NCBI RefSeq assembly: GCF_902833145.1
Contig: NZ_CADFEN010000006.1
Span: 186,001 to 250,000 of the forward strand
Length of the DNA: 64,000 bases
Origin: Burkholderia sp. BCC0506
GTDB lineage: Bacteria; Pseudomonadota; Gammaproteobacteria; Burkholderiales; Burkholderiaceae
Reading direction: 5' to 3'
Shown here: positions 1-16,015 of the stretch, piece after piece
Numbering within the stretch: position 1 is the stretch's first letter
Layout of the letters: each line of letters begins with the position of its first letter
Position numbers and translations under genes: made by a program
The notes under the pieces: generated by a model
Databases searched by the model: none
What the model saw: only the letters and a program-made list of their open reading frames with translations
Told to the model about the DNA's origin: nothing

Positions 1-536
1 TCCGCCGGCTAACCGATTTCTCGGCCGGCCGGCTCGTCCGGACCGGCGATCCGTTCGACCTGGCCATCGCCGGCGACGGTTTCTTCAGAGTACTGACCGA
101 TGCCGGCCCCGCATACACGCGTACCAGCTCGTTCCGGCGCGCGGCCGACGGGCGCCTCGTCACCCGCGCAGGCGGCTGGCCGCTGCAGGGCGCGCACGGC
201 GACATCGTCGTCAGCCTGGACGGCTGGCGGATCGAACCGGACGGCACCGTGCTCGATCACGGGATACCGACGTCCGTCATCCGCGTCGCGACGTTCGACA
301 CTCCGTCGCGCCTGCAGCCCGTCGCGAACGGACTGTACGTGCCGCGCGACACGACCGGTATGCGGGACGTCCCGCCCCGGCTCGCCCAAGGTTTCGCCGA
401 GACGTCCAACGTCAGCGCGGCCGACGACATGGTGCGGCTCATCGAGGCAATGCGTCGCGTCGAAACCGGACAAAAGCTCGTCCATGCGTACGACGACTTG
501 ATGGGCACCGTCCTGCAACGCCTCGGAGGCATGTGA
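1..536 (+). CDS. flgF: Flagellar basal-body rod protein FlgF (3' part)
   Basis: The frame is open from base 3 to the stop at 534-536, so the start codon lies left of the window. The visible protein carries the rod/hook-family middle region (DPFDLAIAGDGFF) and the conserved C-terminal helix block ending in VETGQKLVHAYDDLMG, as in FlgF and FlgG. It is called FlgF because a complete FlgG follows 1 bp after the stop, and flgF-flgG is the usual order. FlgF is a proximal rod subunit in the periplasm, exported by the flagellar type III apparatus. It is the first visible gene of an operon running to 15034. The alternative is another rod paralogue. Confidence 0.8.
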   Translation, partial: RRLTDFSAGRLVRTGDPFDLAIAGDGFFRVLTDAGPAYTRTSSFRRAADGRLVTRAGGWPLQGAHGDIVVSLDGWRIEPDGTVLDHGIPTSVIRVATFDTPSRLQPVANGLYVPRDTTGMRDVPPRLAQGFAETSNVSAADDMVRLIEAMRRVETGQKLVHAYDDLMGTVLQRLGGM

Positions 537-537
537 C

Positions 538-1314
538 ATGAACAACCTGTTCTACATCGGCGCAACCGGTCTCGCCGCACAACAGACCGCCGTCGATACG
601 ACCGCGCACAACATCGCCAACCTGAACACCCCGTCCTTCAAGCGCAGCGCCGTCACGTTTTCGACGCTGCTGACCTCGGGCTTCCTGCCCGCGCCTCGGC
701 AGGAAGCCGTCGCGGCGGGTGGCATCGCGACCGGCGCAGGGGTGACCGCATCGGCCCGGCCTGTGTTCTCGCCCGGCACGCTGCGGCAGACCGACGATAC
801 GTGGGATCTCGCGATCCGCGGCGAAGGCTTCGTCGAACTCGATGCGGCCGACGGCAACGTGACGCTGTGGCGCGGCGGGCGTCTGCGCGTCGGCGACGAC
901 GGCTATCTGCGCGCGTCGAACGGAATCCCGCTGAAAGCGGCGATCTCGGTGCCGCGCGACGCCGAGCGGCTCGAGATCGCGCCGGACGGCCAGGTGCTTG
1001 CCGTCATCCCGAATCAGGTCGCGCCGCTGGAGATCGGCCGGATCGAGATCGCACAGGCGACCGACCCTCGCGCGCTGCAGGCGCTCGGCGACGGAACCTA
1101 CCGGATCGCCGACGACGGCGTCGCCGTGATCCGCTCGCGCCCCGGCGAGGACAACGCAGGCACGCTCGCGCAGGGCTTCGGCGAAGCGTCGAACGTCGCG
1201 CTCGCGGACGAGCTCGCCGGTTTGATGCTCTACCAGCGCGCCTATGCCGCGAGTGCGAAACTCGTCCAGGCGGGCGACGAGTTGATGGCGATCGCGAATG
1301 GCCTGAAGCGATGA
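538..1314 (+). CDS. flgG: Flagellar distal rod protein FlgG
   Basis: This 258-aa protein is of normal FlgG length (about 260). The N-terminus has the family signature for rod and hook proteins (NIANLNTPSFKR, residues about 22-33). The middle has the DLAIRGEGF motif, and the C-terminal helix has LMLYQRAYAASAKLVQAGDE. FlgG builds the distal rod that crosses the periplasm and passes through the P and L rings made by the next two genes. The ATG lies 1 bp after the flgF stop, and the 3' end overlaps flgH by 4 bp, consistent with translational coupling. The sequence shows nothing missing. Confidence 0.92.
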   Translation: MNNLFYIGATGLAAQQTAVDTTAHNIANLNTPSFKRSAVTFSTLLTSGFLPAPRQEAVAAGGIATGAGVTASARPVFSPGTLRQTDDTWDLAIRGEGFVELDAADGNVTLWRGGRLRVGDDGYLRASNGIPLKAAISVPRDAERLEIAPDGQVLAVIPNQVAPLEIGRIEIAQATDPRALQALGDGTYRIADDGVAVIRSRPGEDNAGTLAQGFGEASNVALADELAGLMLYQRAYAASAKLVQAGDELMAIANGLKR

Positions 1315-1943
1315 GTCGGCTCTCACGCAAGTACCATCCGCACGGCGCGACGAAATATTCACGCCGCCTCGGGCCGGCCGCGGCGATCACCTGCGGCGTG
1401 CTGATGACGGCGCTCTCCAGCCGCGCCGACACGCTCTACCGCCCCGACGCGTTCCAACCGCTGATCGCCGACCGTCGCGCGACCACGATCGGCGACATCG
1501 TCACGATTCTCGTCTACGAACAATCGAGCGCGAGCCAGACGGCCGACACGTCGACGCGCGCCGGTTTCTCGGTCAACGGCAGTGTCTCGACGTTGTACGC
1601 CGGAAACAATCGCGCGCAGGTCGGTGCGGGGGACGACTATGGCGGCCGCGGACAGGTCCAGCGCAGCGGCCGCCTGCTCGCACAACTGAGCGCGTCCGTC
1701 GTCGACGTGCTGCCGAACGGCGACCTCGTCGTTGCAGGCGAGCAGCGCATCGACGTCAACGGCGAGAAGACCGGCATCCGTCTGAACGGGCGGGTACGCG
1801 CGATCGACATCGGCTCCGGCAATACGGTTCTGTCGACGCGGCTTGCCGACGCCCGGATCGACTACACGGGCGACGGCTTCGTCACCGACCGCACGAAACC
1901 CGGACTCATTCCCCGCTTTTTCGCGTGGCTCGGCCTATGGTGA
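1311..1943 (+). CDS. flgH: Flagellar L-ring protein FlgH
   Basis: This 210-aa protein has the FlgH body: LYRPDAFQPLIADRRA near the mature N-terminus, the GDIVTILVYE strand, and the hallmark C-terminal blocks NTVLSTRLADARIDYTGDG and RFFAWLGLW. FlgH forms the outer-membrane L ring around the rod. The start is the ATG at 1311, overlapping the flgG stop. An N-terminal hydrophobic segment (about residues 21-37) looks like a signal peptide ending near SSRA/DT. Canonical FlgH is a lipoprotein, but the only Cys here (in AITCG) has Thr before it and makes a poor lipobox, so this copy may not be lipidated. Confidence 0.9.
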   Translation: MSRLSRKYHPHGATKYSRRLGPAAAITCGVLMTALSSRADTLYRPDAFQPLIADRRATTIGDIVTILVYEQSSASQTADTSTRAGFSVNGSVSTLYAGNNRAQVGAGDDYGGRGQVQRSGRLLAQLSASVVDVLPNGDLVVAGEQRIDVNGEKTGIRLNGRVRAIDIGSGNTVLSTRLADARIDYTGDGFVTDRTKPGLIPRFFAWLGLW

Positions 1944-3085: not shown

Positions 3086-3099
3086 AGGAGGAGCAAGCG

Positions 3100-3453
3100 A
3101 TGTCGATGGATCTCGTCGCCGCGATCGCCGGCAAGGCGATGGACGGCCTGTATGCACGCTCTACCGCGCTCGCGCACAACGTCGCGAACGCCAATGCGAC
3201 AAGCTTCTCGCCGCTGCGCGTGACGTTCGAGGACGCGTTGGCCTCCGCCGCGGCCGTGCGGCCCGGCGAGACGGCCGCGGCACGGCTCGAGCGCATCGAA
3301 GCCGTCCGGCCGCACACCGTCGCGACCGCGGACGCGCTCCGGCTCGATCGCGAAATCGCCGACGCGTCGCAAACGTCGGCGCGCTACTCGGTGCTCGCGG
3401 GCGTCCTCGCCCGCTCGTTGCAGCTTCGACTGCTCTCGGTGCGGGGAAGCTGA
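3100..3453 (+). CDS. flgB: Flagellar rod protein FlgB
   Basis: This 117-aa protein starts at the ATG at 3100, 7-8 bp after a strong AAGGAGG ribosome-binding site. An ATG at 3082 that overlaps the flgI stop is less likely because it would place that site inside the gene. The N-terminal helix (ALAHNVANANATSFSPLRVTFEDAL) carries the HNxANAxT signature of the rod family. Length and the lack of a large insert fit FlgB rather than FlgC, F or G. FlgB forms the inner rod with FlgC. Finding flgB after flgI, and not at the head of the operon as in most genomes, is unusual. Confidence 0.78.
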   Translation: MSMDLVAAIAGKAMDGLYARSTALAHNVANANATSFSPLRVTFEDALASAAAVRPGETAAARLERIEAVRPHTVATADALRLDREIADASQTSARYSVLAGVLARSLQLRLLSVRGS

Positions 3454-3455
3454 AC

Positions 3456-3905
3456 ATGTCCGACACGATTTTCGCCATCGCGCGCTCCGGGCTCGACGTC
3501 GAGCGCCAGCGTCTCGAGCTCATCGCGCGGAACTTCGCCAATATTGGCGTCTCTGCCGCGCCCGGCGCCGCACCGTATCGGCCGTTACGACTCGTATCCG
3601 GCCCGCGAATCGAACCGGCGTTCCCGGAAACACTGCGACACGCGCCTGGCGCTGCCTTGCCCGGTCGGCCTGCCGGCACCCGCACGATCGCCATCGACTC
3701 GCTCGACATACCGCCACGTCTCGTGCGCGATGCCGCCCATCCGCATGCAGACGCACAGGGGATGGTCCGCTACCCCGGCCTCGACCATGCTGCCGAAATG
3801 GCGCTGCTCGTGCAGACACTGCGCACCTATGAAGCCAACGTCGTGATGTTCAACGCTGCGCGTTCGATGTATCTGCGCGCGCTCGACATCGGAGGCCAGT
3901 CGTGA
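3456..3905 (+). CDS. flgC: Flagellar rod protein FlgC
   Basis: This 149-aa protein matches FlgC in size (about 140) and layout. It has an N-terminal helix (IARSGLDVERQRLELIARNFAN) equivalent to the usual SAMxAQxxRLNxxANN block. A middle region contains MVRYPGLDHAAEMA, corresponding to the FlgC motif around YPNVN...EM, and the C-terminal helix is TYEANVVMFNAARSMYLRALDIG. It forms the proximal rod with FlgB. The gene starts 2 bp after the flgB stop, and its stop overlaps the GTG start of fliE. The N-terminal motif is more diverged than in canonical FlgC, which fits an old paralogue. Confidence 0.82.
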   Translation: MSDTIFAIARSGLDVERQRLELIARNFANIGVSAAPGAAPYRPLRLVSGPRIEPAFPETLRHAPGAALPGRPAGTRTIAIDSLDIPPRLVRDAAHPHADAQGMVRYPGLDHAAEMALLVQTLRTYEANVVMFNAARSMYLRALDIGGQS

Positions 3906-4192
3906 CACCGATCGACGCCATCGCCTGGCCTATGGACGCCCGTTCGCCGGCAGTCTCCTCCCCGCTCGCAACGGACAGCTTCGTGACGCAGCTGATGTCC
4001 GGCATGCAGCACGTCGACCGAGCGCTGCGTGCTGCCGAGGCAGCCAGCACTGCGTTCGCACTCGGCGACGAACAGCCGCCGCACCAGGTCGTACTGGCGC
4101 TCGAGGACGCACGTTTCAAGCTCCAGTTCGCGCTGAACGTACGCACGCGGCTCGTCGAGGGTTATCAGGAACTGATGCGGATGCAACTGTAA
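3902..4192 (+). CDS. fliE: Flagellar hook-basal body adaptor FliE
   Basis: This 96-aa protein starts with GTG at 3902 (GTGA overlap with the flgC stop). FliE proteins are about 100 aa with a conserved C-terminal helix, here VVLALEDARFKLQFALNVRTRLVEGYQELMRMQ, which matches the family pattern of LxxVRxKLVxAYxExMxMxV. FliE joins the MS ring (FliF) to the rod and is one of the first exported subunits. Its place between flgC and fliF fits. A start codon other than GTG would remove conserved positions or break the overlap. Confidence 0.88.
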   Translation: MTPIDAIAWPMDARSPAVSSPLATDSFVTQLMSGMQHVDRALRAAEAASTAFALGDEQPPHQVVLALEDARFKLQFALNVRTRLVEGYQELMRMQL

Positions 4193-4193
4193 G

Positions 4194-5681
4194 ATGAAGC
4201 GATCGATTTCTCGCGTCGGCGCCTATTTCCGGGCCGGCTCCCGCACGCGTCAATATGCGCTCGCCGGTGCGCTCACCACCGTGGTCGGCTGTGCCGGGCT
4301 CGCCGGCTGGCTGACCTTGCGTCCGTCGTATCAGGTCCTGGTCCGCGACCTGAAGCCGCAGGATGCCGCCGCCGTCGCCGCCCAGCTCGACAAGGAAAAG
4401 GTTCCGTTTCGCTATGACGAGCGAACCGCCTCGATCCTCGTGCCGGCGGACGATGCGCGTGCCGCGCGCGTCAAGCTGACGAGCGCCGATCTGCGCCTGC
4501 AGGGCGTGGTCGGATTCGAACTGTTCAATCAGAGCGATTTCGGCCTGACGGAATTTGCCCAGAAGGTGAACTACCAGCGCGCATTGCAAGGCGAACTCGC
4601 GCGCACGATCGCGACGCTCGATGCCATCGAGCTTGCGCGCGTCCATCTGAGTCTGCCCGAGACATCGCTGTTTCGCCGCGACCGCAACCGGCCGAAAGCC
4701 TCCGTCGCACTCTTCGTACGTGACGGCCATGCGCTCGAGCCCGACGTCGTCAAGGGAATCCAGCGGCTCGTGGCCGCGTCCGTGCCCGAGATGTCGGCCG
4801 CCGACGTCTCGGTGCTCGATCAGCGCGGCGCGTCTGCCGATGCGCGCGGCATCGACTTCGACGATCCGAAGTTCGCGTTGAAGAGTGCCGTCGAACAACG
4901 TTACGAACGCAAGATCCTCGCGCAAATCGCCACCATCGCCGGTACGGGCCGCGCGACGGTCAGTGTCGATGCGTCGCTCGATTTCGACCAGATCCGTACG
5001 ACCCGCGAGTCCGGCCTCACGCAGTCGACGGCCGCTGTCGGCAGCACGCCGGGAGAGTCGATACAGCGCGCCGCCGCCGGGTGGCCGAGCGCAGGCCTGC
5101 CTCCGCTGCCTGGCGCACAGACGGCACCGGCCGCACCGGAAGCCGCTCGCTCGGAGCGCAATGTCGAACAGATCGTCAGGAGCCCTGGGGCAATTCGCAA
5201 GCTGTCGGTCGGTATCGTGCTCGGCGGTGACATGGCGCCCGAGCGCACCGCGCGGCTGCGCGACATCGTGTCCGCGTCGATCGGCCTCGATCCCTCGCGT
5301 GGCGACACGCTCGCGGTCTATGTTTCCGACGCGGTAGCCGAGCCAACGCACGGACCGGCCGTGCCTCCCTCTGCACCGGCTTCGGGCACGGTCGCGCACG
5401 GCGAGAACGGCCCTGGCATGTCTCCCGCTTCCGCGCCGCAATCCGCGCAACGGCACCGGCTGCGCTTCGTCGGTCTCGACAACGCGCAGCCATACGTGCC
5501 GATCGCTGCGGGAGTGGCGCTCTGCATCGTCGTGGCGTGGGCCACGCGCCGCAGAATCGCCGGGCGACTTGCGCCCCCGCGGCGCCTGAGCGATATCCAG
5601 CGCGCCGAATACGCCGCACGCTTGCGGCGGCTGCTCGCCGAGCCCGGCAAGTCACCGGAGGATCGGCATGACGCACGCTAA
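4194..5681 (+). CDS. fliF: Flagellar MS-ring protein FliF
   Basis: This 495-aa protein is a little shorter than usual (about 530-580). It has an N-terminal membrane segment (ALAGALTTVVGCAGLAGWLTL, about residues 21-41) and the periplasmic ring-building domains, with YQVLVRDLKPQDAAAVAAQL and the FNQSDFGLTEFAQKVNYQRA block shared with SctJ lipoproteins. A second membrane segment (YVPIAAGVALCIVVAW, about 431-446) precedes a cytoplasmic tail of about 50 residues. In flagella this tail holds the FliG-binding helix. The 3' end overlaps the next gene by 14 bp. The linker before the second membrane segment is Pro/Ala-rich. Confidence 0.92.
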   Translation: MKRSISRVGAYFRAGSRTRQYALAGALTTVVGCAGLAGWLTLRPSYQVLVRDLKPQDAAAVAAQLDKEKVPFRYDERTASILVPADDARAARVKLTSADLRLQGVVGFELFNQSDFGLTEFAQKVNYQRALQGELARTIATLDAIELARVHLSLPETSLFRRDRNRPKASVALFVRDGHALEPDVVKGIQRLVAASVPEMSAADVSVLDQRGASADARGIDFDDPKFALKSAVEQRYERKILAQIATIAGTGRATVSVDASLDFDQIRTTRESGLTQSTAAVGSTPGESIQRAAAGWPSAGLPPLPGAQTAPAAPEAARSERNVEQIVRSPGAIRKLSVGIVLGGDMAPERTARLRDIVSASIGLDPSRGDTLAVYVSDAVAEPTHGPAVPPSAPASGTVAHGENGPGMSPASAPQSAQRHRLRFVGLDNAQPYVPIAAGVALCIVVAWATRRRIAGRLAPPRRLSDIQRAEYAARLRRLLAEPGKSPEDRHDAR

Positions 5682-6180
5682 TCGGGAACGTCGTCTGCGC
5701 CGCGCGATAGCAGAACTCGCCCGTTGCAGGATCGAGGACGTCGAGTCGATCTGGGCCATGTTGTCCGACGTCGAGCGCGAGCGGCTGCGGCCGCTGCTCG
5801 CCGACGCGTCGCAAGCCGTTGCCGGGCCCGCCATGTCGCCCGCAGTCGCCCCCGACACCGATGCCGACCGATGGGCGAGTCGCCTCGCCCACGCATGCGC
5901 GGTGCTGCCCATCGAGCTGGCGGTACGTCTCGCGGCCGAACTCGATGACGCCGAGCGCAGGCGCATGCTTACCTATCTGCCTGACGAGCGCCGACGCGCA
6001 CTCGCCAACCGCGTCGAAGTGCACCCGGCCGGATTCCGTATCTCGCCGCGAGCAGTCGGCGCGCTGCGCGTCGCCGTACTGGCGATCGATGCAACGACGG
6101 ATGCCGAGCCGCCTTCGCCCGCCTCGACGCCGCGCACCTTGCGCACCCGACTTCGCAACCTGGTGGGGGGGCGGCGATGA
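5668..6180 (+). CDS. Short FliG-position protein with one FliG-like repeat
   Basis: This 170-aa protein sits exactly where fliG normally lies, between fliF and fliH, overlapping both. Residues about 79-117 (from LPIELAVRLAAELDDAERR to ALANRVEV) follow the pattern of the FliG middle or armadillo repeat: (I/L)A, then LDxxxxxxML, then LPxExRxxVAxRI. An N-terminal helical part (residues 1-50) could correspond to the FliF-binding domain. A full FliG is about 330 aa. The second EHPQR-type repeat and the C-terminal torque-generating domain with its charged residues are absent. I infer a reduced FliG analogue, possibly a structural adaptor for the C ring. It could instead be an unrelated helical protein. 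Confidence 0.55.
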   Translation: MTHANRERRLRRAIAELARCRIEDVESIWAMLSDVERERLRPLLADASQAVAGPAMSPAVAPDTDADRWASRLAHACAVLPIELAVRLAAELDDAERRRMLTYLPDERRRALANRVEVHPAGFRISPRAVGALRVAVLAIDATTDAEPPSPASTPRTLRTRLRNLVGGRR

Positions 6181-6872
6181 ACGTCATCCTGAAAGCGCAT
6201 CGCGTACGACTCGAAGACGGCCGCAAGCGGCTAGCCGTGGCGGTAGCAAGCAAGTCTGGCCCGGACGCCCCTCCGTCGGCCGCTCCACCCGACGGGTGCG
6301 CAGCCGAAATCGTGGCGTTGAATGCACGACTCGCGGAATTCGAGGCGAGATGCGCCGCCCTCGACGACGAACGCGAGAAAGCTTACCGCCGAGGTGTCGA
6401 CGAAGGCCGTCGCGAGGCCGACGCAAGCGCGAAGCGCGACGACGACGCGCGCATCGACGCGTTGTCGCGCGGCGTGCACGATGCGCGAGCGTCGTTGCAG
6501 ACGCAGTTCGCGTCGCTCGAAAGCCTTGCGCTCGACGTCGCCCAAGTCGCGCTGGAGCGGATTCTCGGCGCGACCGAGCACTATCCCGCGCTCGTCGCGC
6601 AAACGATCCGGCATCACGTCGCACAAATGAAAACGGGCGTCGTACTGACCGTCGACGTGTCGCGCGCCGATTTTCCCGACGACGAATCGTTACGGCCGAT
6701 TTCCGCTGCCGCGCCCGAATCGATCGTCAACGCGCATCCGCACCTGCCTGCCGGCGCGTGCCGATTCGGACTCGCACCCGGTCGCGCTGAACTCGACCTT
6801 CCCGGGCAACTCGACCGCCTGATGACCCTCCTCCACCGACTCCGCGACGATGCCGATCCAGCCACCTGTTGA
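6177..6872 (+). CDS. fliH: FliH/SctL-type stator of the export ATPase
   Basis: This 231-aa protein has an acidic, Ala-rich coiled-coil-like stretch (residues about 40-110, including DEREKAYRRGVDEGRREAD with the GxxxG-like helix seen in FliH). A C-terminal domain follows (LALDVAQVALERILGATEHYPALV), matching the FliH/HrpE alignment region. FliH dimers hold the FliI ATPase at the C ring and inhibit it in the cytosol. The ATG at 6177 overlaps the previous stop by 4 bp, and the 3' end overlaps fliI by 23 bp. Position directly before fliI strongly supports the assignment, although sequence similarity by eye is moderate. Confidence 0.8.
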   Translation: MNVILKAHRVRLEDGRKRLAVAVASKSGPDAPPSAAPPDGCAAEIVALNARLAEFEARCAALDDEREKAYRRGVDEGRREADASAKRDDDARIDALSRGVHDARASLQTQFASLESLALDVAQVALERILGATEHYPALVAQTIRHHVAQMKTGVVLTVDVSRADFPDDESLRPISAAAPESIVNAHPHLPAGACRFGLAPGRAELDLPGQLDRLMTLLHRLRDDADPATC

Positions 6873-8181: not shown

Positions 8182-8627
8182 CGCCCTCCGATCGCCTGTC
8201 CCTGGCGACACGGATCGCCGAACTCCGCGCGCTGCAATTGTCGCGTGAGCGCGTTGCGGCCCGAAAGCTGACCGCCGCCCGACACGCCGCGTGCCTGCTC
8301 GAACGCGACACGGCGAGCCGGCTGGAGGCTCTCGTACAAAGTGGCCGATCCGACGCCACGAGCGCCGCACTGTCGAGCGGCCTGCTGCTCAATCTCGCCG
8401 GTGCCGTCGACGCGATGCGCGCGACATGGCTGACGGCGGCGGAACACGCGTGCTCCGCCGCCGAACAGGTGGACACGCACCGTTCAGCGCTCGAGCGGCA
8501 GCAGCAGTGTGCCGACGCAGCCGATGCGCTGGTCTCGGCGGCACGCGCCGCCGCACGGCGCGCGCGCGCCAAGGCGAACGACGCGCAGCTCGAAGCGTGG
8601 CTGTCCACTCGGCGGAGAATCGCATGA
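8178..8627 (+). CDS. fliJ: FliJ-type export chaperone
   Basis: This 149-aa protein is almost wholly alpha-helical by composition, with Arg- and Ala-rich heptads in two long coiled-coil arms (about 10-60 and 85-145). It is the expected size for FliJ (about 147) and lies directly after fliI with a 4-bp overlap. FliJ resembles the gamma subunit of F-ATPases and links the FliI hexamer to FlhA. Sequence conservation in FliJ is always weak, so the call rests mainly on position, length and coiled-coil character. Confidence 0.72.
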   Translation: MTPSDRLSLATRIAELRALQLSRERVAARKLTAARHAACLLERDTASRLEALVQSGRSDATSAALSSGLLLNLAGAVDAMRATWLTAAEHACSAAEQVDTHRSALERQQQCADAADALVSAARAAARRARAKANDAQLEAWLSTRRRIA

Positions 8628-9355
8628 ACGCGTCACCGGCAACCACCCTCGGTTCATTCAACGGCCCCTCCGGCGACGCGACGATCCCGCCACGTCATCG
8701 AGACGGCGCACCCTCGGCATTCGCCCAGACCCTGCGTCGGCTCGAACGGGACATGTGGCAGGCTGCGGCGGCCGGACACACGCGATCGACGCCGGACCGA
8801 ACGGCCTCACCGCTAGCCGCGCGGCCGATCCTTCCCGCCATCGCCCCCGATCCTGCGCGATGCCGCTCGCCCGTCAGTGCGACGGCCTCGCAGTCGAGCA
8901 TCGACCATCGTGCGTCCGCGCGGCACGATGCAACCACGGCCGCCCCAGTAGCGCCCGGATCGGGCCAGCATCGGCAAGTGCGCCTCGGCGGTCGTGCGCC
9001 ATCGTCGTCCAACACGTTGGCGCCACCGCTACCCATTTCGAGCGCGCATGGCGCTCGTTCCGTCGCATCCATTGCCACGTCGCTGTCAGCGCCAGCGACA
9101 TCGCGCCCGCCGCATATTCACGCAGGCGATATCGCCCCTCGTCCCGCGTCCGGGCTGCACTACCGGCTCGGCGTGCTGACGGGTGAGGCCGGTCTCTCGA
9201 TCGCCGTACGCGCCGCCGGTATCGAAGACTCGATCCTCGCCCAGCGCGCCTTTGCCGAACTGCGTCGCCTCGGCGTGTCGGCCCCACGCCTCTTCATCAA
9301 CGGCAGGCTTTTCATCGAAACGCATCGACTCTCAGGAGAAACACATGGCGATTGA
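8624..9355 (+). CDS. fliK: FliK-position protein, low-complexity (possible hook-length control)
   Basis: This 243-aa protein is rich in Ala, Pro, Ser, Thr and Arg over residues 1-170 and looks unstructured. The last 65 or so residues are more ordered (LHYRLGVLTGEAGLSIAVRA, then AQRAFAELRRLGVSAPRLFI). FliK and SctP proteins share this layout: a disordered ruler followed by a C-terminal switch domain. The gene lies where fliK is found, between fliJ and flgD. The canonical FliK C-terminal motif around LxPxxLGxVEV is not visible, so function is inferred from position and architecture only. The 3' end overlaps flgD by 11 bp. Confidence 0.5.
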   Translation: MNASPATTLGSFNGPSGDATIPPRHRDGAPSAFAQTLRRLERDMWQAAAAGHTRSTPDRTASPLAARPILPAIAPDPARCRSPVSATASQSSIDHRASARHDATTAAPVAPGSGQHRQVRLGGRAPSSSNTLAPPLPISSAHGARSVASIATSLSAPATSRPPHIHAGDIAPRPASGLHYRLGVLTGEAGLSIAVRAAGIEDSILAQRAFAELRRLGVSAPRLFINGRLFIETHRLSGETHGD

Positions 9356-9752
9356 CTCCATCGGCCCCGTAACGGGCAACGCCGGGCAAGCGAGTCCGGT
9401 CGGACTCGACCTGCAGTCGCTGCTTCGGATCATCGTGACGCAGCTGACCTATCAGGATCCGCTGAAGCCGGTCGACAACTACGAATTCGTGTCGCAGCTC
9501 GCACAATTCACGTCGCTCGAGCAAAGTCGCCAGATCGCCGCCAAGATCGACGATCTGCTGTCCGTGCAATCGGCTACCCAGACGCTCGGTCTACTCGGAC
9601 GCAAGGTCGACATCCGCGGTGACTCGGGCACGATTACCGGCATCGTCAAGGGCCTGTCGTTCAAGGATGGCGAGCCGAAGCTCACGATCGAGAGCGAGAA
9701 CGGAAAGTTCCTCGCCGATGCGACCGTGTCGCAGATCCTGACCGTTCGCTGA
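9345..9752 (+). CDS. flgD: Flagellar hook-capping protein FlgD, short type
   Basis: This 135-aa protein starts at the ATG at 9345 behind a CAGGAGA ribosome-binding site. Residues about 21-60 carry the FlgD N-terminal signature (LLRIIVTQLTYQDPLKPVDN, then EFVSQLAQFTSLEQ). The remaining part (GLLGRKVDIRGDSGTITG, then VKGLSFKDGEPKLTI) is one small beta domain, as in the short FlgD of Gram-positive bacteria. Canonical beta-proteobacterial FlgD is about 220-250 aa with fibronectin- and tudor-like domains. FlgD caps the growing hook, so presence of flgD and flgE implies that a hook is made. Confidence 0.88.
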   Translation: MAIDSIGPVTGNAGQASPVGLDLQSLLRIIVTQLTYQDPLKPVDNYEFVSQLAQFTSLEQSRQIAAKIDDLLSVQSATQTLGLLGRKVDIRGDSGTITGIVKGLSFKDGEPKLTIESENGKFLADATVSQILTVR

Positions 9753-9759
9753 GGCGCCC

Positions 9760-10926
9760 ATGCTCGACAGTATCTATATCGGCATGAGCGGTCTCACTGC
9801 CTACTCGAAGGGCTTGCAGACCATCGGCAACAATGTCGCGAACCTGAACACGCCTGGCTTCAAATCGTCGGCGCCACGCTTTCAGGATCTGTATGACGGC
9901 CGCCCCACCGCGCGAGACGCGCAGCGATCCGGCAGCGGCGTCGCCTATGCACATGCGGCGCTGAATTTCAGGCAGGGCGAACTGCGCGGCAGCACGGGAC
10001 AGCTCGATCTCGCGATCGACGGCGAGGGCCTGCTCGCGCTGCGTGACGGTGAAACGATCCGCTATGCGCGCACCGGCCAGTTCCACGTTGCCGACGACGG
10101 CTTCGTGACCGAACGGACGAGCGGCCTGAGACTCGCCGCACTCGACCCGGCCGGCCCTCCCACGCCGATCTCGCTGGCGAACCGGCAGCTCGATCCGCCG
10201 CGCCCGACCCGCGTAGTCCGTTTCACCGACAACCTGTCGCCCGGCTCGACCGATTTTTCCGTGTCGAACATCGAAGTCTACGACGCGAACGGTGCAACGC
10301 ACGTGCTTAAAGTGTCCTTTGCACTGGAGGCCGGCGTGATGCCCGGACGCTGGAAGGTCACCGTCTCCGATCCCGACGGCACGCCGCTCCAGATCGGCGC
10401 GCTGCAGTTTCACGGCGGCATCCCCGAGCCCGGCCAGGACAAGATCGACGTCACACTGCCATCGTCGCGACTCACCGTGACGCTGGATTTTTCGGACGGC
10501 GTGACCGCGTTCTCCGCCGGCGCCACGTCGACCCTGCGGATGTCGCAACAGGACGGTTATGCGGCCGGGACGCTCGCGTCGATGAGCATCGACCGTGACG
10601 GACAGCTCGCGTTGCGGTATTCGAACGGCCAGACCGGCAAAGCCGGCGCCATCGCACTCGCCCGCTTCGCCGATCCGCGCTTGCTGGTCCCGCTCGGCGA
10701 GGGCCAGTTCGACGCATCGCGGCTCGCCCCTCCACGTTACGCGAAGAGCGGCGATCCGCTCGTCGGTCAGTTGCGCTCCGGTGCAATCGAGGCGTCCAAC
10801 GTCGATCTGTCCGGCGAATTCGGGCAGCTCATCCTGATTCAGCGCGGCTTCCAGGCCGCCTCGCAGGTCATCAGCACGTCGAACGAGATGATCATGCAGT
10901 TGTTCCAGATGCGGGGGCAGGGATGA
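9760..10926 (+). CDS. flgE: Flagellar hook protein FlgE
   Basis: This 388-aa protein has the family N-terminus (IGMSGLTAYSKGLQTIGNNVA with NLNTPGFKS), the LDLAIDGEGL motif and a large middle domain. The C-terminal helix is QLRSGAIEASNVDLSGEFGQ followed by LILIQRGFQAASQVISTSNE. This fits FlgE rather than FlgF or FlgG because of the length and the position after flgD. It polymerises outside the outer membrane into the hook. The gene begins 7 bp after flgD and overlaps the next gene by 4 bp. The length is normal, so a hook-like extension is likely. Confidence 0.92.
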   Translation: MLDSIYIGMSGLTAYSKGLQTIGNNVANLNTPGFKSSAPRFQDLYDGRPTARDAQRSGSGVAYAHAALNFRQGELRGSTGQLDLAIDGEGLLALRDGETIRYARTGQFHVADDGFVTERTSGLRLAALDPAGPPTPISLANRQLDPPRPTRVVRFTDNLSPGSTDFSVSNIEVYDANGATHVLKVSFALEAGVMPGRWKVTVSDPDGTPLQIGALQFHGGIPEPGQDKIDVTLPSSRLTVTLDFSDGVTAFSAGATSTLRMSQQDGYAAGTLASMSIDRDGQLALRYSNGQTGKAGAIALARFADPRLLVPLGEGQFDASRLAPPRYAKSGDPLVGQLRSGAIEASNVDLSGEFGQLILIQRGFQAASQVISTSNEMIMQLFQMRGQG

Positions 10927-11741
10927 CCGACGCGGTGTTCCGCTGGCGACCGCTCGCCGAACGCGATCTGGAGGAGGCCGGAACGCTGTCGGAACGCGCG
11001 GTTGCCCCCTGGCTGCACGCCTGGTGCGATGACGCGCCGCGCGTCGGCGACGTCGTGCGGATTGCACCGCCCGAGCCCCCGCCGTGGTCGTCTGCCGCGC
11101 ATGTCTGGTCGTGCGGGCCGCATCTGCAATGGGCAATCGAGCCACGAACGCTCGACCGGCTCGTTCGGCACGCGCTCGACCTGCCCGACGATTTTTCGGT
11201 CCCCTCTCCCGGTTACTGCGCCGACGTATTGCGCAGTTTCGGGAAATCGATGGCAGACGAAATGGCCGACGCGTTGCGCGCCATCTGCGGCGCCTCGCCC
11301 CCGGACGCGCAACGCCTGTCGCAACCCGACGCAGCGAAACCGAGCGTCTCGCGGTACGAAGGCGTGCATGTCCGCCTCTTGCTCGGGCCGAACGACGCGT
11401 GCCTGTCGATTGTCTTCACCGCGCCATTCTGGTGGACACAACACGTGCCCCGCCGCGTCGCCGCGACACCTCCCGCCACGCTGACATCGCGTTTGACTGC
11501 GCTCGAGTCGACCAGCACACGCATCCACGCCAGGCTTGGCACCGTGGCGCTACCCGTCGCCCAATTGCTCGATCTCATGCCTGGCGACGTCCTGGTGATC
11601 GCCGACCAGCTCGATCCGGTCATTTCCGTCGTCACTGGGCATGCTGGCCGGACCACGGTCGGCCTCGGCCGCCTCGGTCGTACCGACAGACGACTTTCCA
11701 TTCAACTGCAATCACTCGTCGAGCCCAAGGATCACCGATGA
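10923..11741 (+). CDS. C-ring protein with one SpoA domain, FliM/SctQ-like
   Basis: This 272-aa protein has a C-terminal SpoA (surface presentation of antigens) domain at residues about 190-268 (STRIHARLGTVALPVAQLLD, then LMPGDVLVIADQLDPVI). It lies directly before fliN with a 4-bp overlap, where fliM is expected. Real FliM is about 330 aa and begins with an (I/L)LSQxEIDALL motif that binds phosphorylated CheY. Here the N-terminus reads MTDAVFRWRPLAERDLEEAG and has no such motif. It therefore looks closer to SctQ of injectisomes, a sorting-platform subunit without a chemotaxis switch. The middle domain is too diverged to classify by eye. Confidence 0.72.
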   Translation: MTDAVFRWRPLAERDLEEAGTLSERAVAPWLHAWCDDAPRVGDVVRIAPPEPPPWSSAAHVWSCGPHLQWAIEPRTLDRLVRHALDLPDDFSVPSPGYCADVLRSFGKSMADEMADALRAICGASPPDAQRLSQPDAAKPSVSRYEGVHVRLLLGPNDACLSIVFTAPFWWTQHVPRRVAATPPATLTSRLTALESTSTRIHARLGTVALPVAQLLDLMPGDVLVIADQLDPVISVVTGHAGRTTVGLGRLGRTDRRLSIQLQSLVEPKDHR

Positions 11742-12073
11742 CCAGTCACGCCATTTCCGAACGCGCCGTCGTCATGCGTGTCGACCTTCCCGAGCGCGAA
11801 GCGGCCGAGACCACCGAAACACCGCTCGCCCCTGTCCGTCGCCTCGATCTCGTCGACGACGTCATCGTTTCGCTCGACGTGCATCTCGGTTCGGCCGACC
11901 TCTCCATCAAGGAGCTGATGGCGTTGCAGGCCGGCTCCCTCGTCACACTCGATCGACGTATCGACGACAGCGTCGACGTTCGACTCAACGAGCGGACGGT
12001 AGCTCGCGCCGAGATCGTCGCCGTTGGCGATCAGTTCGGCATCCGAATCGTCGAAATCGTCGAGGAACGCTGA
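11738..12073 (+). CDS. fliN: C-ring protein FliN
   Basis: This 111-aa protein consists of a short N-terminal tail and a SpoA domain (residues about 34-108). It shows the FliN pattern LDLVDDVIVSLDVHLGSADL, then SIKELMALQAGSLVTLDRRI, and the end block RTVARAEIVAVGDQFGIRI. FliN dimers form the lower C ring and help dock FliH. The start at 11738 overlaps the previous stop by 4 bp, and the stop abuts fliO directly. Length and motif agree with normal FliN (about 100-140 aa). Together with the preceding gene it should form a SpoA2-type complex. Confidence 0.9.
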   Translation: MTSHAISERAVVMRVDLPEREAAETTETPLAPVRRLDLVDDVIVSLDVHLGSADLSIKELMALQAGSLVTLDRRIDDSVDVRLNERTVARAEIVAVGDQFGIRIVEIVEER

Positions 12074-12472
12074 ATGTCGTCGTTCGATTCATCGCTGAAA
12101 CTGCTTCCGGCATCGGTTGCATCCGCGCCCGACACCCGTACCCGTACCGGAACGATCGATCCGATCGCGGTCTCGTCGATGCTCCGCGACGGCATCGACC
12201 CGTATCGGATCGGCGGTGCGCTCCTTCTCTGCGTCGTGCTCGGCACCGTCGTCATGCTGGCATTGCGCCGGTACGGGTTCGCCCGGCTCGGTGGAAGCGC
12301 CAGCCCGTCAACCAGGAAACGATTGACGATCGTCGAAACCGCACGTCTGGCGCCGCGCGCGACCCTCCATCTGATCGAATACGACAATCGGCGCGTGCTC
12401 GTCGTACTCCATGCGAACGGCGTCTCGCTGCTCGACGCGCACACGCGTCCGTCCTCGGAGACCGCATCATGA
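12074..12472 (+). CDS. fliO: Flagellar export gate assembly protein FliO
   Basis: This 132-aa protein has one membrane segment (IGGALLLCVVLGTVVMLALR, about 46-65) and then a soluble basic domain (RKRLTIVETARLAPRATLHL and VLVVLHANGVSLL). The latter fits the FliO pattern of a small beta-rich domain after a single helix. FliO assists assembly of FliP in the inner membrane. Position between fliN and fliP is canonical, and both junctions are coupled (0 bp to fliN, 4-bp overlap with fliP). FliO sequences vary widely, so the call leans on architecture and synteny. Confidence 0.82.
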   Translation: MSSFDSSLKLLPASVASAPDTRTRTGTIDPIAVSSMLRDGIDPYRIGGALLLCVVLGTVVMLALRRYGFARLGGSASPSTRKRLTIVETARLAPRATLHLIEYDNRRVLVVLHANGVSLLDAHTRPSSETAS

Positions 12473-13254
12473 CCGTGCGCCTCCTGCCCGGCGGGTGTCG
12501 GCTCTCCATGCCGTCACGTGCACCGGGCTTGCTGACGGTCGTTGTATTGCTCTGTGGCCTTGCCCTGCACGCGACCGCAGCTTCGGCCGCGTCGACATAT
12601 GACGCCCCTTTCGCGCTCGATCGCGGCGGCGCGTCGGAGGCCGTGCGCATCGCGGTACTGCTGACACTGCTCAGCATCGGGCCAGCGCTCGTCGTGTCGA
12701 TGACCGCGTTCATCCGGATCGTCATCGTGCTGTCGATGATCCGACATGCATTCGGCATGCCCGAAACCCCGCCGACACCCGTGCTGATCAGCCTCGCGCT
12801 GTTCCTGACCGCGTTCGTCATGATGCCCACGTTCGAAACCGTGCATCACGACGCACTGCAACCGTTCATGGACGGCCGCATCGCCGTCGATCGCGCGCTC
12901 GAGCTCGGCGCCGCGCCGTTGCGCGATTTCATGCTGCGGCAGGTGCGCGACGACGAGCTGCGACTGATGTACGAACTGTCGCGCAAGCCGCTGCCTGCTT
13001 CAGCCGACGAAGTCGGGCTGCTGCAGCTCACGCCGGCCTTCATCCTGAACGAGCTGCGCGTCGCGTTCCAGATCGGCTTCGTCGTGCTGCTGCCGTTCCT
13101 GCTGCTCGATCTCGTGGTATCGACCGTGCTGTTGTCGCTCGGCATGCTGATGGTGCCGCCCGCGACCATCTCGCTACCGCTCAAGATCCTGATGTTCGTG
13201 CTGATCGACGGCTGGGGGCTCGTGATGCGGGGCGTGCTCGGAGGATTCAGATGA
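12469..13254 (+). CDS. fliP: Flagellar export gate protein FliP
   Basis: This 261-aa protein has an N-terminal cleavable signal (about residues 1-41, ending ATAASAAS) and four membrane helices. It shows the FliP/SctR blocks LLTLLSIGPALVVSMTAFIR, MIRHAFGMPETPPTPVLISL, TPAFILNELRVAFQIGFVVL and LSLGMLMVPPATISLPLKIL. FliP forms the core of the export pore with FliQ and FliR. Those two genes do not follow here as they usually do. A sigma-factor gene comes next with a 4-bp overlap, so fliQ, fliR, flhA and flhB must lie elsewhere, most simply upstream of the window. Confidence 0.94.
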   Translation: MTVRLLPGGCRLSMPSRAPGLLTVVVLLCGLALHATAASAASTYDAPFALDRGGASEAVRIAVLLTLLSIGPALVVSMTAFIRIVIVLSMIRHAFGMPETPPTPVLISLALFLTAFVMMPTFETVHHDALQPFMDGRIAVDRALELGAAPLRDFMLRQVRDDELRLMYELSRKPLPASADEVGLLQLTPAFILNELRVAFQIGFVVLLPFLLLDLVVSTVLLSLGMLMVPPATISLPLKILMFVLIDGWGLVMRGVLGGFR

Positions 13255-14048
13255 CGCAGGCGGGCGCGTCGGGCCAGAGCACGCGATCGGCGGACGACAC
13301 GATCGCCGCTCCCGAAACGGAGTTGTGGCGGAAATGGGCCGCCGAGCGCAGCCCCAACGCTCGAGAAGCCGTATTTGCACATTACCTGCCTTATGCGCGC
13401 GCCATCGCCGCTCGGTTGTATGCGGGACGGCATCGCGACGACGTCGAGTTCAGGGACTTCGTTCAACTGGCCTGCATCGGCCTGCTCGAATCGATTGACC
13501 GCTTCGATCCTGCTCGCGGTGTGACGTTCGAAACGTTCTGCACGACGCGCGTGCGAGGCGAGATCCTGACCGGCGTCGAGAAGCTGACCGACGGGCAGGA
13601 ACAGATTTCGTTTTCGCGGCGCGTGCGCAGAGAGCGGGTCGCGTCACTGCAAGCCGACGGCGATCGAGCGGCACGCCAGGGCCGCGACGCGCTGCAGGCG
13701 CTCGGCACGCTGGCAGCCGGGCTGGCAATCGGATTCATGCTGGATGGAACCGGCCTCATCGTACCGCCGGCGGACGGCGTGCCCTCGGATGATCCGGCGC
13801 TACCCGGCGCGGCCTATCACGGCATTGCCTGGCGCCAGACGAAAACACGACTGGCTGCCGCGGTCCTGCATCTGCCTGAACGAACGCGCAAGATCATTCA
13901 GTATCACTATTTCCACGGTCTGGCATTCGAGCAGATCGCCGACATCCTCGGCGTCAGCAAAGGCCGAATCTCGCAATTGCATCGTGCCGCGTTGACGGAA
14001 TTGCGCGAGCGGCTCGGCGAAGCAGAGCACATGCATCTAATCGGATAG
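13251..14048 (+). CDS. fliA: FliA-type (sigma-28) RNA polymerase sigma factor
   Basis: This 265-aa protein has sigma region 2 (FVQLACIGLLESIDRFDPAR and VTFETFCTTRVRGEILTGVE, about residues 70-105) and a region 4 helix-turn-helix near the C-terminus (HLPERTRKIIQYHYFHGLAF and EQIADILGVSKGRISQLHRA, about 206-246). Region 3 is recognisable but diverged, with an Ala/Gly-rich insert at about 145-165. It directs RNA polymerase to late flagellar promoters in known systems. Being the co-transcribed last part of this cluster, it probably gives the system its own promoter set. No FlgM-like anti-sigma gene is visible in the window. Confidence 0.85.
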   Translation: MTQAGASGQSTRSADDTIAAPETELWRKWAAERSPNAREAVFAHYLPYARAIAARLYAGRHRDDVEFRDFVQLACIGLLESIDRFDPARGVTFETFCTTRVRGEILTGVEKLTDGQEQISFSRRVRRERVASLQADGDRAARQGRDALQALGTLAAGLAIGFMLDGTGLIVPPADGVPSDDPALPGAAYHGIAWRQTKTRLAAAVLHLPERTRKIIQYHYFHGLAFEQIADILGVSKGRISQLHRAALTELRERLGEAEHMHLIG

Positions 14049-14051
14049 GAG

Positions 14052-14627
14052 ATGTCGATGAATCGCAATGAATACCGCGCCGCGTTGTGCGACGACGATA
14101 CGATGAGCGAGATCGTTCGCATCGTCGACGGCCCGGACAGCGAAGCGCTTGAGGTCCTCAGTGCCTCGCTGACGCACTGGCCCGACGATCACCGGCTTTG
14201 GTTCCTGCGCGGATCGATCTACGCCGGGAATCAGCGTCGCGCCGAAGCACGCGTCGATTTCGCTCGAGCGATCGTGCTCGCCCCGGATTTCGCCATCGCG
14301 CACTTCATGTTGGGTCTCGTCGACTTGCTGGACGGGCACGTGCAGGATGCGACAGCCCACTGGGAGCCGCTCGACGACGCGCATTCCGGACGCGACGCGT
14401 TGCAGTTGTTCAAAACCGGCTTGCTCGCGCTGTGCGACGACCGATTCGATGTGGCGCTCGACTGGTTGAAACAAGGAATCGCGGTGAACGAGCGTTATCC
14501 AGGCATCAACGCTTACATGGAGAGCATTGTCGAGCAGATCGACGCTTTCAAGCCGGATACCATCGGCAGTGCAAAAGACGGCCATCTTCTGTTGGCTGGA
14601 TATCTGACGTCGCGCACGCGGCATTGA
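14052..14627 (+). CDS. TPR-repeat protein, possible export chaperone
   Basis: This 191-aa protein contains tetratricopeptide-like repeats in residues about 30-150. Examples are HRLWFLRGSIYAGNQRRAEA and VDFARAIVLAPDFAIAHFML, followed by LGLVDLLDGHVQDATAHWEP. Small TPR proteins of this size serve as class II chaperones (SycD/LcrH) for injectisome translocators. A similar role for a substrate of this export system is inference. The gene starts 3 bp after the sigma-factor stop behind ATAGGAGATG and is co-oriented with the next gene. No signal peptide is present, so it is cytosolic. Confidence 0.55.
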   Translation: MSMNRNEYRAALCDDDTMSEIVRIVDGPDSEALEVLSASLTHWPDDHRLWFLRGSIYAGNQRRAEARVDFARAIVLAPDFAIAHFMLGLVDLLDGHVQDATAHWEPLDDAHSGRDALQLFKTGLLALCDDRFDVALDWLKQGIAVNERYPGINAYMESIVEQIDAFKPDTIGSAKDGHLLLAGYLTSRTRH

Positions 14628-14644
14628 CGGCTATCGGAACGCTC

Positions 14645-15034
14645 ATGGATCCAGTTTCAACGCTCAATCAGGTACTGGCGCTGCTGCGGCAGCAAGTCGT
14701 CGACCGGACGCGACGTCAGGTAGGCGGCGAGGCCAGAGCGCTCGCGCGTGATAGCGCACCGGCTACCGCACGCACGGCCGATTCTGATTTGCGCACGCTA
14801 CTGCGCGAAAGAATCGACGCGCTGCGAATCGCCGGCGTCGACGATGAAGCTCAACTGGCATGTATGGCCATCGACACCGTACTGCGACATGAATTCGGCG
14901 CGACGCTCGGCAATGAGCCGGAGTTTCAGGAGATGACAGAGTGGGTATGGAAGGGGATGATGGGTGACGAGCACACGTCGGCGCTGCTCAGTGACGTGAT
15001 GCGTGGGCTCGGGTATAGGTCGGGAAAGCGGTGA
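14645..15034 (+). CDS. Unrecognised 129-aa protein ending the flagellum-like operon
   Basis: The ATG at 14645 lies 17 bp after the TPR gene. I do not recognise the family. The protein is helical and charged, without a signal peptide or membrane segment. Residues 1-30 contain NQVLALLRQQVVDRTRRQ. Residues about 75-125 are acidic with AIDTVLRHEFGATLGNEPEF and EWVWKGMMGDEH. As the last gene of the operon, after a sigma factor and a possible chaperone, it may be a secreted substrate, a regulator of export or a cytosolic factor. The sequence does not decide between these. Confidence 0.4.
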   Translation: MDPVSTLNQVLALLRQQVVDRTRRQVGGEARALARDSAPATARTADSDLRTLLRERIDALRIAGVDDEAQLACMAIDTVLRHEFGATLGNEPEFQEMTEWVWKGMMGDEHTSALLSDVMRGLGYRSGKR

Positions 15035-15501: not shown

Positions 15502-15577
15502 TGGGTCAAATCGCGGAAATTATCAGGATAGAGACGGAAATACCGAGTGCCACCCTAACCTGCGCCCTCGCTCATGG

Positions 15578-15847: not shown

Positions 15848-15980
15848 TTACTTCCCCGGATAAATGCGGGCGAAACAGCTCGCCTGGCAGCGGCGTTTTT
15901 TCAAGCGTGGTCACAATCCCCATGCTCGGCCCATACAGCGTCGGCGACAGGCTGTACGGCGTATGGCTGTTATCGACGAG
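15848..15980 (-). pseudogene. rhs 3'-end fragment B (displaced tip remnant)
   Basis: Bases 15870-15980 are a near copy of bases 17724-17834 inside the large rhs gene. Both are 111 bp, with only scattered substitutions. They encode the LVDNSHTPYSLSPTLYGPSM segment that precedes the toxin tip. The homology stops at about 15870, and only about a dozen unrelated residues remain before the stop at 15831-15833, which overlaps the next small immunity-like gene. I read this as the scar of a tip module whose toxin domain has been deleted while its immunity gene stayed. A short open frame of 66 codons (15831-16031) spans it but is unlikely to be a functional gene. Confidence 0.7.
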
Positions 15981-16015
15981 GTCAAGCGCATCCAGATCAA
16001 GCTGCATGAAGGTCT

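What the first reader, a model, noticed from the sequence alone, without database searches (positions are those of the whole stretch)
1..15034. Divergent second flagellum-like operon with its own sigma factor and several motility parts missing
Seen: twenty-two coupled genes from flgF to a sigma-factor/TPR/129-aa block, in an order not matching the standard Burkholderia flg and fli operons. Within the window there is no filament, filament cap, stator, chemotaxis or anti-sigma gene, and after the 129-aa gene comes an Rhs island, so nothing more follows downstream. The FliG-, FliM- and FlgH-position proteins are reduced or altered. Known: FliG torque domain and FliM CheY-binding motif are needed for rotation and switching. 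Inference: this may be a hook-bearing export machine rather than a motile flagellum, or a half-decayed lateral flagellum. The left part of the operon is unseen.
Basis: partly seen in the sequence, partly recalled or inferred. Interest (0 to 1): 0.8.

Follow-up and report, generated by a model that had tools for sequence, protein, structure and literature searches.

The report
Filamentless flagellum linked to Rhs toxins
Beside its normal flagellum, this bacterium carries genes for a stripped-down second one with no filament or motor genes, and in nearly all the genomes examined that carry such genes a giant toxin-like protein comes with them, so it is probably a protein-export weapon rather than a swimming device.

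Summary
The 22 window genes are real. With fliQ, fliR, flhB and flhA just left of base 1 they form a 26-gene cluster: flagellar export gate, rod, rings, hook and an own FliA-like sigma factor. Searches found no flagellin, filament cap or stator gene, and the FliG-position protein lacks the torque domain. The neighbouring Rhs island is not incidental. In 398 genomes of the GTDB family, this FlgE type occurs in 16 (15 complete clusters, one disrupted copy) and this Rhs subfamily in 15: exactly the 15 complete ones, always beside the cluster. In 369 genomes of the class, the four best genomes of each search coincide. Of 39 named alpha-, beta- and gammaproteobacterial genomes with the system, 35 have the Rhs N-terminus; 5 controls have none. 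Most Rhs genes carry a sigma-28-spaced promoter, and Rhs and FliI diverge together. Best reading: a flagellum-derived secretion system that exports giant Rhs proteins through a bare hook. Export is inferred, not shown. 'Half-decayed flagellum' is unlikely, since the same parts are missing throughout a clade that keeps the other genes.

The parts
1..536 (+). flgF-like rod gene (starts at -168, left of the window)
538..1314 (+). flgG distal rod
   Evidence: Flg_bbr_C, LlgE_F_G_D1, Flg_bb_rod
1311..1943 (+). flgH L-ring
   Evidence: PF02107, 155.9 bits
1925..3085 (+). flgI P-ring (start may be 1937)
   Evidence: PF02119, 370.5 bits
3100..3453 (+). flgB proximal rod
3456..3905 (+). flgC proximal rod
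3902..4192 (+). fliE
   Evidence: PF02049, 67.9 bits
4194..5681 (+). fliF MS-ring, 495 aa
   Evidence: TIGR00206, 192.5 bits over cut-off 129.75
5668..6180 (+). short FliG-like protein without a FliG_C (torque) domain
6177..6872 (+). fliH (by position and HMM within the system)
6850..8181 (+). fliI export ATPase
8178..8627 (+). fliJ (by position)
8624..9355 (+). fliK hook-length protein (by position)
   Evidence: no Pfam hit
9345..9752 (+). flgD hook cap
   Evidence: PF03963
9760..10926 (+). flgE hook protein, marker of the system
10923..11741 (+). FliM/SctQ-like C-ring protein, only the C-terminal FliMN_C domain recognised
11738..12073 (+). fliN
12074..12472 (+). fliO
   Evidence: PF04347
12469..13254 (+). 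fliP (start uncertain)
   Evidence: TIGR01103, 245.6 over cut-off 217.45
13251..14048 (+). FliA/WhiG-like sigma factor
14052..14627 (+). small TPR protein, conserved in the locus; possible export chaperone (inference)
14645..15034 (+). X129, conserved helical protein without a known family; possible chaperone or anti-sigma factor (inference)
16893..31508 (-). giant Rhs/YD-repeat protein, 4871 aa, LysM domain, variable C-terminus; proposed exported substrate
31374..31508 (-). conserved N-terminal 45 residues of Rhs, candidate export signal
31575..31605 (-). sigma-28-spaced promoter of Rhs, CTAAAC-N17-GACAACCT
16565..16888 (-). 107-aa ORF directly after Rhs, candidate immunity gene (by position only)
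16016..16375 (-). orphan Rhs C-terminal fragment, 86% identical to Rhs residues 4635-4730

Best explanation
The cluster encodes a flagellar type III secretion machine cut down to export gate, ATPase, rings, rod and hook. It has no filament gene and its FliG lacks the torque domain. It assembles a bare hook; FliK and FlhB then switch specificity. The locus's own FliA-like sigma factor (or the cell's FliA) switches on the neighbouring giant Rhs gene from a sigma-28-type promoter, so Rhs takes the regulatory and export slot that flagellin has in a motile flagellum. The Rhs protein leaves unfolded, led by its conserved N-terminal ~45 residues and helped by the TPR protein and/or X129. Outside it refolds and delivers its variable C-terminal domain, most likely in competition with other bacteria. 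Shown: gene content, the missing parts, linkage, co-divergence, promoter motif. Inferred: assembly of a hook, export of Rhs, which sigma factor is used, chaperone roles, target.
For: Linkage, family: FlgE of this type in 16 of 398 genomes (>=406 bits; next 210); Rhs N-terminus in 15 of the same 398, all within the 16. The sixteenth, G269, is a disrupted copy. In 15 of 15 the Rhs lies beside the cluster: 11 downstream, 4 upstream. Class: of 369 genomes the four best for this FlgE (>=303 bits; next 225) are the four best for the Rhs N-terminus. Named genomes: 35 of 39 with the system have it, 0 of 5 controls. Promoter: 19 of 26 Rhs genes score >=11 of 14 against 0.47% of 3000 random windows; in 20 whole genomes the strict motif occurs 7 times, 5 just before Rhs, 1 about 950 nt before a second Rhs gene, 1 before a flagellin; reversed control 0. 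Rhs and FliI identities correlate over 21 loci, r=0.80, 0 of 5000 permutations as high. FlhB autocleavage motif NPTH in 13 of 15. In 19 genomes no FliG_C or flagellin match lies in the locus. G666, where FlgE and Rhs N-terminus lie on one contig, has neither anywhere in its draft assembly, so a motile flagellum seems not to be needed.
Against: No experiment. The N-terminal signal is not demonstrably flagellin-like (z 0.9). In the class search the Rhs side separates poorly: the fourth genome, G702, scores 87 bits and the fifth, G501, 82; seven genomes have weaker Rhs N-termini (34-82 bits) without this FlgE. Four of 39 named system genomes have no Rhs hit, and two of the 35 rest on partial matches (G772 at a contig end; G794 in a 92-aa frame, not confirmed). 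Of the 35, 20 were placed on the operon's contig, 7 tested were on other contigs and 8 were not tested. The strict promoter motif stands before Rhs in only 5 of the 15 carriers searched, and 7 of 26 Rhs genes have no good match. The motif was derived from the same genes. Export of a ~4900-residue protein through a ~2 nm channel would be very slow. A T6SS TssM gene lies in 2 of the 16 long loci.
Confidence: 0.75

Rival explanations
1. Half-decayed lateral flagellum: a motile flagellum that has lost filament and motor genes by drift.
For: Missing fliC, fliD, motAB and torque domain; flgE is split into two frames in G076; G269 is a disrupted copy; no flgA in the window.
Against: 23 of 26 gene families found in all 15 complete clusters of the family; the same parts missing in named loci of three classes; fliF-to-fliH space under 1000 nt in 54 of 55 loci, so FliG is short nearly everywhere; one clade, 0.967 support; linkage to Rhs.
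Confidence: 0.03
2. The hook-basal body borrows filament and stators from the canonical flagellum and is motile.
For: The own genome has a canonical flagellum.
Against: No FliG_C in the locus; the FliM-like protein shows only FliMN_C; G666 has this FlgE without any FliG_C or flagellin hit (draft of 550 contigs, 97% complete).
Confidence: 0.02
3. Rhs is a T6SS or other-route effector and sits beside the cluster because both travel as one island; the hook machine exports something else.
For: Rhs proteins are known T6SS effectors (PMC6993521 passage); TssM in 2 of the 16 long loci, G028 and G342; patchy distribution suggests transfer; weaker Rhs relatives exist without the machine.
Against: No PAAR in the Pfam scan of the whole Rhs; the strict promoter motif recurs before a flagellin; the Rhs changes side while linkage stays; co-divergence. 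TssM absence in the other loci is weak evidence: one query, and the 41 named loci reach only 10 kb from flgE.
Confidence: 0.1
4. Rhs is the external appendage itself: a fibre or adhesin that caps or replaces the filament on the hook, not a released toxin.
For: Sigma-28-type promoter as before a flagellin; LysM domain could bind cell walls; no filament gene found.
Against: C-terminus is variable and followed by an orphan C-terminal fragment, as in polymorphic toxins.
Confidence: 0.1

Closest known systems
Bacterial flagellum hook-basal body
   Same: Export gate, ATPase complex, MS, P and L rings, rod, hook, hook cap, FliA-type sigma factor
   Different: No filament or stator gene found; FliG without torque domain; FliM-like protein reduced; linked Rhs gene
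Non-flagellar T3SS (injectisome; PMC3459982, passages read)
   Same: Flagellum-derived export machine without motility parts; FliM-position protein matches SctQ as well as FliM
   Different: L/P rings (FlgH, FlgI) and no secretin seen; rod and hook in place of needle; FliP and FliF pass the flagellar, not the SctR/SctJ cut-offs
Buchnera hook-basal bodies (named in a PMC3459982 passage)
   Same: Basal body retained without motility, proposed to secrete
   Different: There a reduced flagellar locus of a non-motile endosymbiont; here a separate clade, mostly beside a canonical flagellum, with its own sigma factor and a linked candidate substrate
flag-2 lateral flagella of Enterobacterales (PMC6993521, passages read)
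   Same: Second flagellar locus; authors suggest secretion; one strain has an Rhs gene as cargo
   Different: 77.87% of flag-2 strains appear to encode the full flagellar complement; Rhs there is sporadic cargo, here found in 15 of 15 complete family clusters
Lateral flagellum of the same genus (G020, G040 read; G013, G051 by FliF only)
   Same: Second flagellar locus
   Different: G020 has fliC, fliD, fliS, motAB and a 324-aa FliG; FliF 32-35% identical to the window's
Rhs polymorphic toxins of T6SS
   Same: RHS repeats, variable C-terminus, orphan C-terminal fragment
   Different: No PAAR; own conserved N-terminus; sigma-28-type promoter; flagellar partner

Membership tests
Motile bacterial flagellum | Flagellar export gate and ATPase (FlhAB, FliPQR, FliHI) | tested here: met
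Motile bacterial flagellum | Rod, P/L rings and hook | tested here: met
   (flgB, flgC by similarity to lateral-flagellum genes and position)
Motile bacterial flagellum | FliG with C-terminal torque domain | tested here: not met
   PF01706 rings in 18 of 19 genomes but never in this locus
Motile bacterial flagellum | Filament (flagellin) encoded with the system | tested here: not met
   PF00669 rings in 18 of 19 genomes but never in this locus; 0 of 57 loci by phmmer
Motile bacterial flagellum | Stator MotA/MotB in the locus | tested here: not met
   0 of 57 loci by phmmer with one lateral-type MotA and MotB query; the only positive control is the query's own locus, and named loci reach only 10 kb
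Motile bacterial flagellum | FliM with middle domain and CheY motif | tested here: inconclusive
   Only FliMN_C found; NCBIfam fliM and SctQ match equally weakly
Non-flagellar T3SS (injectisome) | Secretin ring | tested here: inconclusive
   No unassigned gene of secretin size in the operon; outer ring genes are flgH and flgI. No secretin model was run
Non-flagellar T3SS (injectisome) | Core proteins of the SctR/SctJ type | tested here: not met
   FliP and FliF exceed flagellar cut-offs and fall below SctR/SctJ cut-offs; FliI is below both FliI and SctN cut-offs
Non-flagellar T3SS (injectisome) | Falls in the injectisome clade | tested here: inconclusive
   Trees were rooted on one injectisome
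Rhs polymorphic toxins | RHS/YD repeats | tested here: met
   PF05593, 28 stretches
Rhs polymorphic toxins | Conserved body with exchangeable C-terminus and orphan C-terminal fragment | tested here: met
   Alignment with G049 ends at residue 4766 of 4871; orphan at 16016-16375
Rhs polymorphic toxins | PAAR domain (T6SS type) | tested here: not met
   No PAAR at E 0.01 in the whole protein
Rhs polymorphic toxins | Toxic activity and immunity | not testable with these tools
   No experiment
FliA (sigma-28) sigma factors | Regions 2 and 4, FliA/WhiG family | tested here: inconclusive
   Sigma70 r2 and r4 above Pfam cut-off; FliA_WhiG 106.5 bits, below its cut-off 189.6

The most novel reading that the evidence does not exclude
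A further class of type III machine, beside flagellum and injectisome: a second, independent conversion of the flagellum into a dedicated delivery system, spread through alpha-, beta- and gammaproteobacteria. It uses a bare hook as its outer conduit and has put a giant Rhs toxin in the place of flagellin, under the same kind of late promoter.
Probability: 0.55. Interest if true: 0.95.

Novelty: new variant of a known kind. Interest (0 to 1): 0.9.

Why it matters
Abby and Rocha (PMC3459982, passages read) write that flagellar T3SS have probably been exapted for secretion on multiple occasions, but that the injectisome lineage arose only once. A clade with a linked, co-diverging candidate substrate makes the question of a second conversion testable. 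It would also explain how a group of Rhs proteins without a PAAR domain leaves the cell, and it means that loci of this type annotated as second flagella are probably not for motility.

Tried and rejected
Flagellin-like N-terminus of Rhs: it looks similar by eye, but an ungapped comparison with column shuffles gave z 0.9 (201 of 1000 shuffles as high); dropped.

Other proteins carrying the same N-terminal 45 residues: hits in 40 of 45 genomes; most lie in frames of thousands of residues like Rhs. Shorter frames (39-1534 aa) exist, several at contig edges; they were not followed up, and no clear non-Rhs cargo was established.

X129: AlphaFold model of moderate confidence (pLDDT 76.6), no fold match (best E 3.7). 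The absence of a match is not evidence of a new fold.

Sigma-54 or sigma-28 site before fliQ: none by simple pattern. Plasmid collection by megablast: no match. FliI-only tree: the system is monophyletic but with support 0.42; the eight-gene tree gives 0.967, with only 14 other loci, the own canonical flagellum by 3 of 8 genes. Rows dropped: G076's split flgE was left out of alignment A3; Rhs matches under 100 bits were left out of the promoter count and; G269, L179, L196, L202 and L205 were left out of the eight-gene tree.

Papers: ten searches listed no paper whose title or abstract start describes this linkage; the library lacks most subscription journals and all bioRxiv. Papers opened (passages only): PMC6993521, PMC3482391, PMC3459982. 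All other titles were seen only in search listings.

Recalled, not from a call: the sigma-28 consensus spacing, the role of NPTH in FlhB, SctQ and TPR chaperones of T3SS, PAAR as T6SS tip, channel width, names of core genes read by eye.
Full report
What is there. The window lies at G000:C6:186001-250000 in a 7.29 Mb genome of 45 contigs. Reading left of base 1 adds fliQ (-4346), fliR, flhB, flhA and the start of flgF; further left lie an ABC-transporter gene and core genes such as argS and metH (named by eye). The complete cluster therefore has 26 genes, from fliQ to the 129-aa gene. The cell also has a canonical flagellum (fliF, fliG, fliI at C6:374-380 kb) and an injectisome on contig C7.

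What is missing. The FliG-position protein (170 aa) has no FliG_C domain. Its AlphaFold model (pLDDT 80.1) matches solved FliG proteins best, the top rows in the middle domain. A genome-wide search for FliG_C in 19 genomes with this FlgE found it in 18, never in this locus. The same holds for flagellin. The genome that lacks both, G666, is a 550-contig draft of 97% completeness in which I saw only FlgE and the Rhs N-terminus. In 54 of 55 loci the space from the end of fliF to the fliH match (or fliI frame) is under 1000 nt, too small for a full FliG of 331 aa. FliC, FliD, FliS, MotA, MotB and full-length FliG queries gave no hit in 57 loci (16 long, 41 named). As controls each query taken from a control locus found itself; FliG, FliS and FliC queries also found the other flagellum's copy, FliD, MotA and MotB only themselves, so sensitivity to distant FliD and stators is not proven. 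The 41 named loci reach only 10 kb either side of flgE.

How widespread. Within the genus, FliF of this type was found in 5 of 65 genomes (G000, G028, G035, G049 and the more distant G027). Within the family, the FlgE profile separates cleanly: 16 of 398 genomes score 406 bits or more (G076 in two frames), the next 210. One of the 16, G269, is a disrupted copy: nothing of the operon before fliH, no fliN or fliO match, and fliP-sigma-TPR-X129 inverted on a 26.5 kb contig; whether this is decay or assembly is open. In the other 15, 23 of the 26 gene families are found by profile in every cluster; the FliG-like, FliJ and FliK profiles find only the nine closest. In the class, 4 of 369 score 303 or more and the next 225. 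A capped scan of 84,980 named species kept the best 80 loci of 592; by gene content and order I count 41 as this system (L178-L215, L217, L221, L225), of which L179 and L202 lie on the contigs of G269 and G183 by length. Of the 41, 24 have matches to all three of sigma, TPR and X129. Names include Burkholderia, Caballeronia, Luteibacter, Sphingomonas, Novosphingobium, Roseateles, Variovorax, Achromobacter, Cupriavidus, Chromobacterium, Dyella, Lysobacter and Kangiella. An eight-gene tree of 66 loci keeps all 52 system members together with 0.967 support, apart from the own canonical flagellum, two lateral Burkholderia flagella, ten non-proteobacterial flagella and the injectisome used as root. 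Few proteobacterial flagella are in that tree.

The Rhs partner. Next to the window's cluster lies an Rhs protein of 4871 aa (16893-31508, minus strand) with 28 RHS stretches and a LysM domain. A profile of its first 160 residues was run on the same 398 family genomes: 15 have it, exactly the 15 with a complete cluster. By the hypergeometric formula 15 of 15 falling within 16 of 398 is about 3e-26, though genomes are related and the figure is not a true probability. In all 15 the Rhs lies beside the cluster: 11 downstream of sigma by 2.9-13.7 kb and 4 upstream of fliQ by 1.4-1.5 kb. In the FliI tree the upstream and downstream arrangements are interleaved, so linkage survived rearrangement. 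In the class search the four genomes with this FlgE are the four best for the Rhs N-terminus, each with a match on the FlgE contig (in G702 a 47-residue piece at the contig end). The Rhs side separates less well: G702 scores 87 bits and the next genome, G501, 82; seven genomes have weaker Rhs N-termini (34-82 bits) and no such FlgE. In 39 named genomes with the system, 35 have the Rhs N-terminus; 5 controls have none. Two of the 35 are partial matches (G772, G794). The four without are L179 (as G269), L193, L211 and L214. Several genomes carry more than one copy. Over 21 loci, Rhs and FliI identities correlate with r 0.80, with 0 of 5000 permutations as high.

Promoter. Upstream of most Rhs genes is a match to CTAAAC-N17-GAYAACYT, which has the spacing of sigma-28 promoters (recalled). 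Of 26 Rhs genes (second copies included), 19 score at least 11 of 14; random 200-nt windows do so in 0.47%. The motif was read off these genes, so that count is partly circular; the whole-genome search is the better test. In 20 genomes (15 with Rhs, 5 without) the strict pattern occurs 7 times and its reversed control 0 times. Five lie directly before Rhs (5 of 15 carriers), including the window's at 31575-31605. One lies about 950 nt before a second Rhs gene in G183. One lies about 125 nt before the Flagellin_N match in G168 (flagellin place). In G183's main locus a 13 of 14 match lies before two Hint-like genes that precede Rhs.

Mechanism. Shown: genes for a machine with gate, rod, rings and hook but no torque domain or filament gene found; FlhB's NPTH cleavage motif in 13 of 15 (not in G027 and G176), so a hook-to-late switch is plausible; a late-type promoter on many Rhs genes; linkage and co-divergence. 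Inferred: that Rhs is the late substrate, that its conserved N-terminus (13 of its first 38 positions invariant among nine sequences, against 18 of the next 122, where some rows end early) is the export signal, that TPR or X129 is its chaperone, and that X129 might instead be an anti-sigma factor. The variable C-terminus (alignment with G049 stops at residue 4766 of 4871) and the orphan C-terminal fragment fit a polymorphic toxin, most likely against other bacteria.

Known or new. Flagellar export of non-flagellar proteins and a general idea of repeated exaptation are in print (PMC3459982, PMC6993521; passages read). Ten paper searches listed no report of this clade or its Rhs link (calls under tried and rejected). 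By membership it fails as a motile flagellum (FliG_C, flagellin) and its core is not of injectisome type (the secretin test is inconclusive); it works like a secretion system built on a hook-basal body. I file it as a new variant of the T3SS kind and give the bolder reading, an independent class, a probability of 0.55.

Noticed in passing
window 15061-16375 (-): Small ORFs after the Rhs 3' end; 16016-16375 is 86% identical to Rhs residues 4635-4730, an orphan C-terminal fragment. This stretch has lower G+C (about 0.57-0.59).
   Followed up: partly
window 31879-33030 (+): A 383-aa TPR protein divergent from Rhs; large TPR-looking genes, by eye, lie beside the Rhs or the operon in G028, G183 and G266.
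   Followed up: partly
G183 locus (oriented locus coordinates 24348-25898), G266 25162-25896: Hint-like (by eye) proteins of about 210-245 aa directly before Rhs, behind the same promoter motif in G183; the one scanned has no Pfam hit.
   Followed up: partly
L148-L154, L157 (G405, G430, G493, G501, G576, G683, G709): Seven small genomes of the class (1.0-2.6 Mb) with large Rhs-like frames whose N-terminus resembles this one weakly but without the flagellar type; how these leave the cell is open.
   Followed up: no
G028 and G342 loci: A T6SS TssM gene near the operon/Rhs in 2 of the 16 long loci.
   Followed up: partly
L011, G000:C7:324620-336256 (-): A 3878-aa ORF and an asparagine-synthetase-like ORF sit inside the injectisome gene cluster (names by eye).
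   Followed up: no
L052-L055 (G020, G040): A true lateral flagellum in other species of the genus: fliC, fliD, fliS, motAB and a 324-aa fliG in G020; motAB and fliG in the part of G040 that was read.
   Followed up: partly
   Followed up: partly
G076:C45:382860-384042: flgE is split into two overlapping frames in this genome; sequencing error or frameshift not resolved.
   Followed up: no
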